DNA of 64,000 nt from Prosthecobacter dejongeii. Its GTDB lineage: Bacteria; Verrucomicrobiota; Verrucomicrobiia; Verrucomicrobiales; Verrucomicrobiaceae. The position numbers and the translations under genes were made by a program. The stretch covers positions 352,943 to 416,942 of the forward strand of contig NZ_JACHIF010000004.1 in the NCBI RefSeq assembly GCF_014203045.1. Reading direction: 5' to 3'. The notes under the pieces were generated by a model, which was not told where the DNA came from, did no database searches, and worked only from the letters and a program-made list of their open reading frames with translations. Positions 4,792 to 52,376 of this stretch are shown in pieces. Within the stretch, counting starts at the first letter, position 1. Each line of letters opens with the position of its first letter.

Positions 4792-4881
4792 GGAGAGGTG
4801 GTCGAGTGGTTTATGGCTCCAGTCTTGAAAACTGGCGTGGGGTAATTCTCACCGTGGGTTCGAATCCCACCCTCTCCGCCA
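4792..4881 (+). tRNA. tRNA-Ser (anticodon UGA)
   Basis: GGAGAGG (4792-4798) pairs with CCTCTCC (4871-4877), followed by the discriminator G and an encoded CCA. The anticodon stem CCAGT/ACTGG encloses the loop CTTGAAA (anticodon TGA). The long variable arm and 90-nt length fit a class II tRNA-Ser. The T-loop reads GGTTCGAATCC. Its 3' end is the attachment site of the two mobile elements downstream; integration leaves the tRNA intact because the element carries the matching 3' sequence. Confidence 0.97.
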
Positions 4882-4913
4882 CCCCGTTTTCGAGCACCTT
4901 AGATGCTTGGACG
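4859..4913 (+). other. Left attachment site (tRNA-Ser 3' end)
   Basis: This 55-bp stretch recurs at 52322-52376 with one mismatch (G at 4902, C at 52365). It includes the T-loop half of the tRNA and 32 bp beyond the CCA. The 18-bp core common to all three copies is 4865-4882 (TCCCACCCTCTCCGCCAC). It marks the left end of element 1. Confidence 0.9.
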
Positions 4914-4943
4914 GCCTTGGGGATGAAGGAGTAAGGTAGTGAC

Positions 4944-6758
4944 ATGGAACCCCCAACTGTCACACTTGCCCTCTCTGAATCAATGTCCCGCCAACAAGGT
5001 TTGCTGCGTCGCGGCTCACGCTGGCACAGCAATTTTAAAGTGCCTCTCGACCTCCAAGCGGCGCTTGGAAAGAAGCTCATCCGCGAATCTCTCGGAACCT
5101 CCGACTACAAGGAAGCCTGCCGGAGGGTTGTTTACGAACGGGCGCGAGTCACCGCGCTTTTTGAAAACGAGCGGCGAAAACTGGTGATCCTAAAGGCCCC
5201 CAAGGCCAAGCACGAAAAGCGTCTTCTTACGGTCATTTCAGAACGCGAAGCGTGGGAGATGGCAGCCCGCTACCTTGCCACGTTTGAACACAAGTTCGGA
5301 AATTGGATGCAAGAGGAAGGCCGCTTCCTTGGCGAGCATGAACGGGAGCAAATGCGCTCCAATGTTCAGGAGGATGAATACGACTTGGCACGGGGAGAGG
5401 AATACAAAGGCCAGCCGTTGGACGGCACCCGTGAGTTGCTGCGCTTCCTTCAAAGCGAAGGCATTGAATGCGCCGTCACCAGCCCTGCCTTCAAGACACT
5501 CCGGCCTCTGTTCTTCAATGCACATCTGGAGTATCTAGGGCGTGCTCAAGACATGCTCAAAGGCGATGCAGCAAAGGAACGAAGCCACCAGTTCAAAGGC
5601 GTGCATTTTCATTCGCCGGCGATTGCTGAGCAGAAGAAGGGGAAAACGATCAACGATCTTTTGGAACTGCGGAAGCAGACCATTCAAGAGTTCAACCTCT
5701 CTCGAAAAAGCGCCGATGCCTCACAACTCACGGCCCGCCTTCTTCGTGAGTTCTTTGGAGGGGAACGCCAGCTTTCGGCCATTCAGCCGGAGGACATCCG
5801 GCAGCTTTTCGATTTGCTGCGCCGCATTCCCCCGAACGCCACGAAGCGTTACAAAGGAATGACGCTGGAGCAGGCGGTTGCGGCAGCCGACAAGGCAGAA
5901 GACCGGAGGCGCTTGAGTCCGAAAACGCTCCGCAACAACTACATTCAAATCACAGCCCTGTTCAATCTGGCGATGGGAGAAAAGTGGATCAGTGAAAACC
6001 CTGTCAAAAGCAAACGACTGAGCCGGTCATTTGAAGACAACGCCGATTCACCTCCCCGCCCACAGTTCACGATTGAGGAACTGAACCGCCTTTTCCGCTC
6101 GCCGTTTCACATGGAATGCGCCCAAGGCAAAGAACGCGGAGGGCGCTTTTGGGTTCCGCTGTTGTCCCTGTTTCATGGCTTCCGCTGCAATGAAGCCTGT
6201 CAGCTTTACACGGAAGACGTGAAGACCGTGGAAGGCATCACCTTCATTGCCATCCGCGAAGAACGGGAAGACGGCAGCAAATGCGAAAAGAAGCTCAAGA
6301 CAAAGCAGAGCAAGCGCGAGGTTCCCTTGCATCCTGAGTTGATCCGGCTGGGCTTCATGGATTTTGTTCAAGAACGCAGGCGTGACAGTGCATCCCCTCG
6401 CTTGTTCCCGGAACTCACGCCGGGCCACAAGGGCTATTTCTCCGATGCCTTTAGCAAATGGTTCGCCCGCTTCGTGGAATTGACCGTTGGCAGCGAATGC
6501 CGGGCAACCATGCACAGTTTCAGGCACCAGTTCAGAGACGCCACAAGGGCGGCAAGGCTCCCCGCTGAAACGGTGGCACGCCTCGCAGGCTGGGAAGACG
6601 GTGAAGGCCCGGCAAGCCGTCAAATGAACCACTATGGCAGAGGAGCGGGCTACCTCCGCACACTCGCGGAAGACATCGCCAAAATCGAATACCCCGGCCT
6701 TGATCTGAGTCACCTTTGCGCTGCAAAAACGGTGAAATCGGAGCCTGCCGAAGATTGA
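4944..6758 (+). CDS. Tyrosine recombinase (integrase) of element 1
   Basis: 604 residues, starting 62 nt after the tRNA CCA with AAGGAG upstream; an alternative ATG lies at 4983. The N-terminal segment (LLRRGSRWHSNFKVPLDLQ...GKKLIRESLGTSDYKEA) is the short beta-rich domain common in phage integrases of this type. A SAM-like core-binding domain follows (about 235-350), then the catalytic domain (370-580). Visible catalytic residues are Arg414 (HGFRCNEA), His524 and Arg527 (MHSFRHQF) and the presumed nucleophile Tyr564 (MNHYGRG). It should recombine the tRNA-Ser core for integration and excision. Its position beside the attachment site is typical. Confidence 0.93.
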   Translation: MEPPTVTLALSESMSRQQGLLRRGSRWHSNFKVPLDLQAALGKKLIRESLGTSDYKEACRRVVYERARVTALFENERRKLVILKAPKAKHEKRLLTVISEREAWEMAARYLATFEHKFGNWMQEEGRFLGEHEREQMRSNVQEDEYDLARGEEYKGQPLDGTRELLRFLQSEGIECAVTSPAFKTLRPLFFNAHLEYLGRAQDMLKGDAAKERSHQFKGVHFHSPAIAEQKKGKTINDLLELRKQTIQEFNLSRKSADASQLTARLLREFFGGERQLSAIQPEDIRQLFDLLRRIPPNATKRYKGMTLEQAVAAADKAEDRRRLSPKTLRNNYIQITALFNLAMGEKWISENPVKSKRLSRSFEDNADSPPRPQFTIEELNRLFRSPFHMECAQGKERGGRFWVPLLSLFHGFRCNEACQLYTEDVKTVEGITFIAIREEREDGSKCEKKLKTKQSKREVPLHPELIRLGFMDFVQERRRDSASPRLFPELTPGHKGYFSDAFSKWFARFVELTVGSECRATMHSFRHQFRDATRAARLPAETVARLAGWEDGEGPASRQMNHYGRGAGYLRTLAEDIAKIEYPGLDLSHLCAAKTVKSEPAED

Positions 6759-6837
6759 GACAATCCAGCTTTTCACTCTTGCGTGCTCTCTGCCGACTCT
6801 CTAATTTCACAGTGCTGATCGAGAGGTCAGACGAGAC

Positions 6838-6974
6838 TTGATAACCTCGCGTATAGCGGCGGGCGTGTGCCGCAAACACGCCGCTTCCAGACCTGAAAAT
6901 GGCCCGGAGGCGGCGGTTATGTCCAGAGCCTCCGGCTTAAAGGCCGTCGCGGTCGTCTATACGCGACTTATCAA
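6838..6974 (+). ncRNA. Nested inverted-repeat structure (possible structured RNA or DNA site)
   Basis: An outer near-perfect inverted repeat (TTGATAACCTCGCGTATAG at 6838-6856, with its complement lacking one base at 6957-6974) closes a 137-nt segment. Inside are two hairpins: GGCGTGT/ACACGCC (6862-6882) and CCGGAGGC/GCCTCCGG (6904-6935). The predicted fold is a closing stem with two or three branches. It lies in the 284-bp gap between the integrase and the GYF_2 gene, with no open frame. It could be a small RNA, a replication origin, an integrase/excisionase site or a complex terminator; the sequence alone does not decide. Confidence 0.45.
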
Positions 6975-7042
6975 CTCTCGGGTCACCCGTTTGGAATTTT
7001 TCCAGGCGTGGTGACAGAGATTGATTTTCTGCCTTTGAACAC

Positions 7043-51339: not shown

Positions 51340-51412
51340 CAGAAAAACTAGCATGCCAGTTGAGGAAGCTCACCTCATTTCTCCTGCGCTGGATTGACAT
51401 GGCAAAGGAAGC

Positions 51413-51865
51413 ATGAGCACTTCGCCTCCCTCTTCCTCTGCCCGTCTCTTTGCCGCCGCCCTCAGATATCTCGGCACGAAAGAAGTGCCAGGAGCTGGGA
51501 GCAACCCAAAGATCAAAGCCTGGATCAAGGAAGCAGCGACCTGGCTAAATGGCGATGACAGTAAGACCGCCTGGTGTGGATGCTTCAGAGGGGGCGTGGG
51601 CCTTGAGACCGCCACCGGCGTGCCACCTGAGCACTACCGCGCTGCCGAATGGGGTACCTGGGGAAAAGCTGTGGATCTGAAAAAGCCCCAGACATGGCAG
51701 AGAGGGGACACCATCGTGATGACCAGGCCTGGGGGAAATCACGTCTGCCTTCTGGACCGCATCGAGGGCCGCACCGCTTACTGTTTGGGTGGCAACCAGG
51801 CGGACAGCGTGAGCATCGCACCTTTCCCGATTTCACGGATTACGCATGTCAGGAGGCTGAGTTAA
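51413..51865 (+). CDS. Endolysin (NlpC/P60- or CHAP-like, TIGR02594 type)
   Basis: 150 residues. LRYLGTKEVPGAGSNPKIKA, the catalytic Cys55 in KTAWCGCFRG, GDTIVMTRPGGNHVCLL with His110, and YCLGGNQADSVSI match the family of small peptidoglycan peptidases found in phages. It has no signal peptide, so it needs the holin. TTGACA lies 13 nt before its start. Confidence 0.85.
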   Translation: MSTSPPSSSARLFAAALRYLGTKEVPGAGSNPKIKAWIKEAATWLNGDDSKTAWCGCFRGGVGLETATGVPPEHYRAAEWGTWGKAVDLKKPQTWQRGDTIVMTRPGGNHVCLLDRIEGRTAYCLGGNQADSVSIAPFPISRITHVRRLS

Positions 51866-51938
51866 AGCCTGAAACTATCTGCTAAAAAGGTCTGGTAAAC
51901 GTTGATATACTTCATTGTTAGACCATAGTGTTTTCACA

Positions 51939-52229
51939 ATGAAGACAGCCCAAAACGCCCCCGAAGAACTGCTCAACGAACTTGTGATTTTGGGTTTTGC
52001 TCCAGGTCGCTGGGACAGCAAAGACTGCCGGATCCTAGACCTCAAAAACGACGAAGGTCATACCGCCCTCCGAGTCACTCTCGACTATGACGGTGAACCG
52101 AAGCCTCAGACCACGAGCCTCCTGAAATTGGATGGCCGCAACAGCCAAAGCGTCGAATGGAGCAGCCAAAACATGAGCGCCAGCATGCCCCTCCCCGGTC
52201 TGCTAGCCCTGATCAAAGCCTGCCTGTAG
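51939..52229 (+). CDS. Hypothetical protein at the prophage right end
   Basis: 96 residues from ATG 51939; a TTG upstream is not needed. MKTAQNAPEELLNELVILGF then beta-strands (TALRVTLDYDGEPKPQTTSL). No family recognised. It follows ATTGTTAGACCAT, the motif seen near other late starts. Confidence 0.5.
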   Translation: MKTAQNAPEELLNELVILGFAPGRWDSKDCRILDLKNDEGHTALRVTLDYDGEPKPQTTSLLKLDGRNSQSVEWSSQNMSASMPLPGLLALIKACL

Positions 52230-52321
52230 GGCAGGGGATTCTACACAAACTTTTAGTGTAGAGTTGGTGTAAATCAAAAATAGGGCTCCAAAGGCTTTTA
52301 AAATAGGGATTACTAGGAGGC

Positions 52322-52376
52322 TTCGAATCCCACCCTCTCCGCCACCCCGTTTTCGAGCACCTTACATGCTTGGACG
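52322..52376 (+). other. Right attachment site (attR)
   Basis: Matches 4859-4913 at 54 of 55 positions. The core TCCCACCCTCTCCGCCAC is 52328-52345. The 32 bp to the right are chromosomal and match the left end of element 1, so element 1's attP shared about 50 bp with the chromosome. Confidence 0.9.

What the first reader, a model, noticed from the sequence alone, without database searches (positions are those of the whole stretch)
4859..52376. Two elements integrated in tandem at one tRNA-Ser site
Three copies of TCCCACCCTCTCCGCCAC bound two elements with unrelated integrases. The flanks show exactly the hybrid junctions expected: tRNA|element 1, element 1|element 2 and element 2|chromosome. 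The outer copies share 55 bp with one mismatch. Either integration order is consistent, so each element can probably excise alone or both together.
Basis: partly seen in the sequence, partly recalled or inferred. Interest (0 to 1): 0.72.

Follow-up and report, generated by a model that had tools for sequence, protein, structure and literature searches.

The report
Stacked mobile elements at one tRNA
In a Verrucomicrobiaceae-type bacterium a small satellite-like element and a complete-looking prophage have inserted one beside the other at the end of a serine tRNA gene, next to a scrap of an earlier visitor of the small kind, which belongs to a little-described family whose members often carry anti-phage defence genes.

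Summary
TCCCACCCTCTCCGCCAC occurs exactly three times in the window and in the 6.0 Mb genome, and bounds two elements with unrelated tyrosine integrases: E1 (8.2 kb) and E2, a 39.2 kb lambda-type prophage. The proposed refutation failed: E1 stands alone at the same tRNA-Ser in a sister genome (G026), with both ends as predicted, and survives as a deleted remnant in G024.

One part is wrong. The right junction is not simply element 2|chromosome. The 31 bp right of the core (52346-52376) are the left end of an E1-family element (31/31 to G026, 30/31 to E1), absent from ten control flanks. So a third, mostly deleted element lies there, and E2 integrated to its left. In a second genus (G088) tRNA|phage-like element|E1-family element shows what such an intermediate looks like.

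E1 belongs to a family of tRNA-integrated elements (21 of 386 genomes of the order): DUF6538 integrase, uncharacterised ~500-aa protein, PinR-type recombinase (15 of 18 elements), small terminase (8 of 18, no large terminase found), and cargo that matched defence genes in 4 of 6 elements scanned. This suggests phage satellites; packaging is inferred, not shown. Tandem accretion is known; I found no description of this family in the papers searched.

The parts
4792..4881 (+). tRNA-Ser(UGA), attachment gene; its 3' end is the first core copy (4865-4882)
   Evidence: ARAGORN, pattern search
4865..13127 (+). Element 1 (E1), 8,245 bp from core copy 1 to core copy 2
   Evidence: core copies; same left and right ends around stand-alone E1 in G026 and a deleted copy in G024
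4944..6758 (+). E1 tyrosine integrase, 604 aa, DUF6538 + Phage_integrase
   Evidence: Pfam DUF6538 1.7e-14, Phage_integrase 5.3e-8
7043..8083 (+). GYF_2-domain protein of E1
   Evidence: Pfam 4.3e-12; homologues in several sister elements
8772..10301 (+). 509-aa protein of unknown function, second core gene of the family; possibly a replication initiator
   Evidence: no Pfam match in any of 9 members scanned; TBP-like fold shared with rolling-circle initiators, Z 6.2-6.6 only
10517..11461 (-). GH16 glycoside hydrolase, cargo
   Evidence: Pfam Glyco_hydro_16 1.2e-14; no PADLOC match
11498..12184 (+). PinR-type serine recombinase
   Evidence: Pfam Resolvase 4.4e-29; phrog_125 DNA invertase 1.1e-34
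12394..12999 (+). terminase small subunit-like protein (TerS) near the right end of E1
   Evidence: phrog_4102 1.8e-25; best Foldseek match Sf6 TerS, prob 0.77 but E 0.19, on a model of mean pLDDT 67
13110..52345 (+). Element 2 (E2), 39,218 bp from core copy 2 to core copy 3; shares 24 bp with the tRNA end at its right (52322-52345)
13256..14515 (+). E2 tyrosine integrase, 419 aa
   Evidence: phrog_1 1.5e-22
27732..30568 (+). E2 terminase small (27732-28559) and large (28556-30568, lambda gpA type) subunits
   Evidence: phrog_57 2.6e-6, phrog_15 6.2e-52; among 20 listed of 143 phage records the best E-value is an Akkermansia phage, 1e-27
30907..34806 (+). E2 portal, head maturation protease, major head protein
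   Evidence: phrog_21, phrog_94, phrog_212
52346..52376 (+). 31-bp relic of the left end of a third, E1-family element, right of E2
   Evidence: 31/31 identical to the G026 left end, 30/31 to E1; 0 of 500 shuffles reach its score, ten control flanks not raised

Best explanation
The region is a serial accretion at the 3' end of a tRNA-Ser gene. An E1-family element integrated first and is now reduced to its 31-bp left end. E2, a lambda-type temperate prophage, integrated in the core to its left. The present E1 sits between tRNA and E2; whether it came before or after E2 is not decided. Each integrase recombines a core of about 18-24 bp that restores the tRNA 3' end, so each new arrival recreates a target. 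E1 is one of a family of small integrative elements that most likely move as phage satellites (integrase, possible replication protein, small terminase that would redirect a helper's packaging). Shown: junctions, family, relic, a second tRNA|phage|E1 array. Inferred: order, excision, replication, packaging.
For: Three cores, unrelated integrases. E1 alone at tRNA-Ser(UGA) in G026, same right end. The sequence right of E1 differs in each host, and 17 of the 19 tRNA-Ser loci fetched lack the E1 left end. 31-bp relic. In G088 tRNA-Ser|15-kb phage-like element|E1-family element, where the tRNA core (TCCCTCTC...) differs at two bases from the core at the element's own right end (TCCCACCC...), as site-specific crossover predicts. 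Eighteen elements with integrase and 509-aa protein, 11 with a tRNA called next to the integrase. Small terminase in 8 of 18; no large terminase among seven E1 proteins in Pfam and five in PHROGs or nine unassigned proteins of four TerS elements' loci in PHROGs. Defence-type cargo in 4 of 6 elements scanned.
Against: One genome per species is held, so no same-species empty site could be read. The closest relative G033 has a different recombinase gene at this tRNA, and no synteny with the right flank of G000 was found within about 58 kb, so the native right flank is unproved. Beyond 31 bp no significant match to the family remains right of E2 (best E 0.27). Ten of 18 elements show no TerS. The phrog_4102 profile also rings in 5 of 14 control genomes, so weak hits to it mean little; one strong hit (G015:C194) lies near an integrase but without the 509-aa gene. 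E1 and E2 small terminases are unrelated, so E2 is not obviously E1's helper. Excision and packaging are untested.
Confidence: 0.82

Rival explanations
1. One composite 47.5-kb element with a 55-bp att repeat integrated in a single event; the middle 18-mer is internal.
For: The outer repeats are longer (55 bp, one mismatch) than the middle one (18 bp).
Against: E1 exists without E2 at the same tRNA in G026 with its right end exactly at the middle core. The extra 31 bp are an E1-family end sequence, present there without E2. Two integrases.
Confidence: 0.06
2. E1 and E2 arrived as a pre-formed pair (after accretion elsewhere) by one joint integration.
For: Transfer of tandem CIME-ICE pairs is reported (PMC5704250, passages read).
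Against: No other genome with close relatives of both was found among 48 of the genus; the best other match to E2's large terminase there is 37% identical. The relic shows that the site was used before.
Confidence: 0.12
3. The 31 bp right of E2 are native chromosome, and E1's left end carries the same sequence because its attP was captured from this site.
For: Integrases often carry host-matching attP (general knowledge); no same-species empty site is available.
Against: The sequence is an end of the E1 family in another genus too (29/31 in G088), and 17 of 19 tRNA-Ser loci and ten control flanks lack it.
Confidence: 0.07
4. E1 is an integrative mobilizable element moved by conjugation; the 509-aa protein is a relaxase and the TerS-like protein a plain DNA-binding regulator.
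For: The 509-aa model resembles TBP-like/Rep_trans initiators, a fold also used by some relaxases (recalled), Z 6.2-6.6. Some TerS homologues also hit regulator profiles weakly. The TerS fold match is weak.
Against: Rep_trans profile found in 0 of 286 genomes of the class; no relaxase Pfam match in seven E1 proteins; phrog_4102 terminase is the best profile for all six E1-family TerS proteins scanned.
Confidence: 0.25

Closest known systems
Tandem accretion of ICEs/IMEs/CIMEs at gene 3' ends (review PMC5704250, passages read)
   Same: Successive site-specific integrations at one gene end, hybrid att sites, decayed neighbours, distantly related integrases; prophages and satellite prophages are named among the neighbours.
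   Different: Here the partners are a prophage and a satellite-like element, and the decayed neighbour is reduced to 31 bp.
Dehalococcoides ssrA tandem islands (PMC3146451, passages read)
   Same: Several tandem islands bounded by 20-bp repeats of an RNA gene end; modules include a PinR homologue.
   Different: Serine integrase DsiB instead of a DUF6538 tyrosine integrase; cargo includes reductive dehalogenases.
Phage-inducible chromosomal islands (PICI; features recalled)
   Same: Small, integrase plus small terminase, no structural genes found, fixed att site, defence cargo in relatives.
   Different: No PICI-type regulators or primase identified; no helper shown.
PICMI (PMC10803314, passages read)
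   Same: Minimal element (PICMI115 is 6.1 kb) with integration and replication functions.
   Different: PICMIs sit at fis and their search model requires AlpA and a primase; the E1 family sits at tRNAs and 8 of 18 carry TerS.

Membership tests
Tandem accretion at a tRNA site | same core at every junction, one per element boundary | tested here: met
   three copies, only three in the genome
Tandem accretion at a tRNA site | components exist separately elsewhere | tested here: inconclusive
   E1: yes, G026 and a remnant in G024. E2: no close relative among 48 genus genomes
Tandem accretion at a tRNA site | components excise alone or together | not testable with these tools
   needs junction PCR or reads
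PICI | integrase next to a fixed att site, small size | tested here: met
   8.2 kb; integrase starts about 60 bp after the tRNA
PICI | packaging gene such as TerS, without the phage's structural genes | tested here: met
   TerS phrog_4102; no other structural match among five E1 proteins in PHROGs or seven in Pfam. In the family TerS is in 8 of 18 elements
PICI | stl/alpA-type regulators and pri-rep | tested here: inconclusive
   no such Pfam match in seven E1 proteins, but small ORFs were not scanned and the 509-aa protein is unassigned
PICI | induction and packaging by a helper phage | not testable with these tools
   no experiment
PICMI | integration at fis | tested here: not met
   att is tRNA-Ser; fis as hallmark from PMC10803314
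Integrative mobilizable element | relaxase or recognisable oriT | tested here: inconclusive
   no relaxase Pfam match in E1; weak fold likeness of the 509-aa protein to Rep_trans; oriT not sought
Rep_trans rolling-circle initiators (PF02486) | profile or clear fold match | tested here: inconclusive
   no Pfam match in 9 members; 4cij, 4cwe, 4cwc at Z 6.2-6.6, below TBP chains at up to 8.0
Lambda-type temperate phage (E2) | integrase, gpA-type terminase, portal, protease, major head protein in order | tested here: met

The most novel reading that the evidence does not exclude
E1 belongs to a previously undescribed family of phage satellites in Verrucomicrobiota: tRNA-targeted by DUF6538 integrases, replicating through a new initiator-like protein, packaged through a stand-alone small terminase, and shuttling interchangeable anti-phage defence genes (IetAS, restriction-modification, AbiJ-like, HNH effector). 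They stack on prophages and on each other at tRNA genes.
Probability: 0.45. Interest if true: 0.75.

Novelty: new variant of a known kind. Interest (0 to 1): 0.52.

Why it matters
Tandem accretion is known, but here the history can be read from att sequences: one site was used at least three times, by two element types. The family behind E1 looks like a satellite lineage in a phylum for which I found none described in the open-access papers searched, with cargo that often matches defence genes. It gives a handle on how defence genes and prophages move in Verrucomicrobiota, and a core ~500-aa protein without any Pfam family.

Tried and rejected
Single composite element: rejected because E1 stands alone elsewhere. 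Assembly artefact: not tested with reads; judged unlikely because the same E1 ends occur in independent genomes. E2 as E1's helper: its TerS is unrelated to E1's, and no significant DNA is shared between E1 and E2 outside the cores (best E 0.078), so no support. Native right flank through synteny with G033: its 7.9 kb after the tRNA have no match in the own genome, and about 58 kb after it none at E below 1e-10 in the stretch compared. Portal of E2 in viral contigs: none. E1 TerS and 509-aa protein in 50,697 phage records, and 509-aa in 72,556 plasmid records: none. 509-aa fold: Foldseek gave no match at E 0.001 or below; the second look is led by TBP chains; no Rep_trans family in 286 genomes of the class; the PDB sequence search gave only weak DEP-domain matches, best E 0.0071; in PHROGs four families matched one member each, best E 0.025. 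Another phage as helper: a search of the own genome for one large-terminase family (PF03237) found one place, C2:304974; the neighbouring protein scanned has no PHROG match, so no phrog_4102-type TerS was seen there; other terminase types were not searched. DUF6538 is in no paper of the library. The likeness of L070's right flank to an E1 left end (1 of 500 shuffles) was picked after seeing it, so it is weak. The shuffles keep base content only. Coordinates printed are one base too high; bounds of the G088 elements are taken.
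Full report
Check of the observation. The 18-mer occurs at 4865, 13110 and 52328, exactly, on the + strand; 0.13 matches with up to three mismatches are expected by chance. In the whole 6.0 Mb genome (22 contigs) these are the only exact copies. The first is the 3' end of tRNA-Ser(UGA), 4792-4881. Outer copies share 55 bp with one mismatch, the middle copy 18 bp.

E1, 4865-13127. Reading rightwards from the tRNA: a 604-aa tyrosine integrase with DUF6538 starting about 60 bp after the tRNA, a GYF_2 protein, an ORF without a match, a 509-aa protein with no Pfam family, a GH16 hydrolase on the other strand, a PinR-type serine recombinase, and a small terminase-like protein close to the right core. 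No other phage structural gene was found among the proteins scanned (seven in Pfam, five in PHROGs).

E2, 13110-52345. Integrase, ParB-like protein, primase-like and DUF5906 proteins, small and large terminase of the lambda gpA type, portal, head protease, major head protein, a tail fibre match and a baseplate/lysozyme match; many of its proteins have no match. It looks complete, but no close relative was found among 48 genomes of the genus: eight others match its large terminase, at 37% identity or less. Nor was its portal found in IMG/VR. Among the 20 listed of 143 phage records its large terminase has its best E-value with an Akkermansia phage.

The refutation test. Among the matches listed for 55 relatives, those that run 60 bp or more past the tRNA end are G026:C81, G024:C30, G015:C353 and a second place in G026 (C141); all four continue into DNA that matches E1's integrase region. 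A match in G047 runs about 29 bp past it at 80% and was not followed. G026:C81 holds E1 without E2: its matches run from tRNA-Ser to exactly window position 13126, with different cargo between, and unrelated sequence follows. G024 holds a version of about 1.5 kb in which the integrase start is fused to the end of the 509-aa gene and the last 108 bp are 97% identical up to 13126. Of the 19 tRNA-Ser loci fetched, 17 have other sequence after the tRNA. The closest relative, G033, has at this tRNA a protein with a serine recombinase match. So E1 is a real, separable element.

The third junction. Right of the third core lie 31 bp that equal the left end of the G026 element (31 of 31) and nearly that of E1 (30 of 31); then the likeness stops. 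The best ungapped match of this 31-mer in the window outside E1 and this junction is 18 of 31. Its alignment score is 63, the largest of 500 shuffles 37; ten control flanks (right sides of other elements, tRNA-downstream sequence, E2's left end) are not raised, with 140 to 500 of 500 shuffles reaching their scores. The simplest reading is a third element of the E1 family, deleted except for its left tip, with E2 integrated at the core to its left. No other significant match to eleven family loci was found in 52377-56220 (best E 0.27). Right of it lie a Y1-type transposase gene that is multi-copy in the genome and a partial copy of thiC. The native right flank could not be fixed: no synteny with G033 was found within about 58 kb.

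Another genus. G088, one 8.2 Mb contig of another genus of the family, has a whole tRNA-Ser(UGA) at about 5153.8 kb, then about 15 kb with a long protein I read as a tape measure (from its sequence, not scanned) and an integrase distantly like E2's (27% over 259 aa), then a copy of the tRNA 3' part, then an E1-family element ending in its own core. The tRNA core there reads TCCCTCTCTCTCCGCCA and the core at the element's right end TCCCACCCTCTCCGCCA. The element keeps its own two bases, as expected if the crossover lies in the last bases of the core. The IMG/VR record UViG_641736179_000004 is the same DNA where compared and lumps both elements as one virus. I recall but did not check that this is Verrucomicrobium.

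The family. A profile of the 509-aa protein finds 21 of 386 genomes of the order, in 9 of 50 genera. From the fetched loci I counted 18 elements with both integrase and 509-aa protein (the G088 element, present in L051 and L129, counted once). A tRNA was called next to the integrase in 11 (Ser, Glu, Gly, SeC); in G088 the neighbour is the duplicated tRNA end and in G015 a tRNA broken by Ns; the other five show none, two of them at contig ends. The serine recombinase is in 15 of 18 and the small terminase in 8 of 18; two elements are cut by contig ends near the 509-aa gene (L049, L132). Not counted: L044 (fused remnant), L133 and L134 (no integrase found), and weaker hits that were not fetched as regions (G091, G192, G289, two places of G201). 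No large terminase turned up: an E2-type profile found none outside E2, and nine unassigned proteins from the loci L045, L071, L127, L128 and L129 gave none in PHROGs. Two genomes hold two copies 8-11 kb apart (G343, G275), so these elements also stack on each other. The own genome has a second one at tRNA-Ser(GGA) (L075), with at most a weak TerS-type match (5.2e-4).

Cargo. Ten cargo proteins of six elements, picked by size, were scanned with PADLOC. Four elements carry defence-type matches: IetA and IetS side by side (G070), an HNH effector (G088), an AbiJ-like protein (G033:C7), and a type II restriction enzyme with methylase (G068). Two do not: L075 and the window's GH16. Cargo does not sit at one place: in E1 and G088 it lies between the 509-aa gene and the recombinase, in G033:C7 and G068 nearer the integrase, in G070 near the TerS.

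How it most likely works. Each integrase joins its attP to the tRNA 3' end, restores the tRNA, and leaves a core on the far side. Later arrivals use the core beside the tRNA or the one behind an element. The E1 family has integration genes, a candidate replication protein and often a small terminase without a large one, which is how some PICI satellites redirect a helper's packaging (recalled knowledge of PICIs). The TerS assignment rests on phrog_4102 (1.8e-25) and on Sf6 TerS as best structural match, with a weak E-value. Against it, the phrog_4102 profile also rings in 5 of 14 control genomes, and in 16 of 68 of the family, partly by weak hits. The 509-aa protein has a TBP-like fold in the model (mean pLDDT 72), a fold shared with rolling-circle initiators, at Z values that are common by chance. 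E2's own small terminase is unrelated to E1's, so the helper may be another phage.

Known background. Tandem accretion, including prophages and decayed elements beside IMEs, is reviewed in PMC5704250 (passages read). Dehalococcoides carries tandem islands at ssrA with a PinR homologue (PMC3146451, passages read). PICMIs are minimal satellites at fis (PMC10803314, passages read). A review of helper-dependent elements names P4, PICI, cfPICI, PLE, PICMI, VEIMEs and tycheposons (PMC11389934, passages read). Searches for satellites or PICIs together with Verrucomicrobi- returned 2, 3 and 1 papers, none of which appeared from its listing to describe such elements there (listings only; most subscription journals and bioRxiv are outside the library).

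Verdict. A correct observation and a mostly correct reading, to be amended by a third element at the right junction. The tandem is ordinary in kind; the family of E1 is the more interesting part.

Noticed in passing
G000:C6:346000-364000 (L075): A second E1-family element in the same genome at tRNA-Ser(GGA), with a PIN-domain cargo gene and at most a weak TerS-type match.
   Followed up: partly
L046 (G033:C6), about 10365-18540: The closest relative has at its tRNA-Ser(UGA) a large serine recombinase-like protein, an AAA_13 ATPase gene and a 949-aa protein that reads like a TraI-type relaxase/helicase (not scanned).
   Followed up: partly
window 54903-55433 (-): Partial copy of thiC beside the full thiC gene at 56221-58344.
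   Followed up: no
window 53183-54319 (-): Y1 (IS200-like) transposase gene with three further 76-77% copies in the genome and many similar ones in the genus.
   Followed up: no
L044 9057-10671 (G024): Deletion remnant of E1 of about 1.5 kb that keeps both ends and fuses the integrase start to the end of the 509-aa gene.
   Followed up: yes
L127 (G343:C213), L125/L126 (G275:C29): Pairs of E1-family elements 8-11 kb apart in other genera; one pair next to a tRNA called as tRNA-SeC.
   Followed up: partly
L071 12055-12299 (G012): Three near-copies of the core within 250 bp at the right end of an E1-family element.
   Followed up: no
L070 7612-7680 (G026:C66): An element right end with TerS followed by a degenerate E1-like left end, perhaps another tandem relic (1 of 500 shuffles reach the score; picked after seeing it).
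   Followed up: partly
window about 4914-4929 and 13074-13088: Imperfect palindromes around CCTTG...CAAGG lie near both ends of E1 and in several family members; possible integrase arm sites.
   Followed up: no
G033:C4:484301 (L069), G026:C66 (L070): TerS plus serine recombinase without integrase or 509-aa gene found nearby: probably decayed E1-family ends.
   Followed up: partly
G015:C194:4271-4585 (L162): A phrog_4102-type TerS near a tyrosine integrase (6892-8049, phrog_1 1.6e-58) but without the 509-aa gene: another element type, perhaps a source of the TerS.
   Followed up: partly
L128 3018-7558 (G070:C119): The IetA/IetS pair lies between a fragment of the serine recombinase gene and a longer broken copy of it, as if the defence genes came in there.
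   Followed up: no
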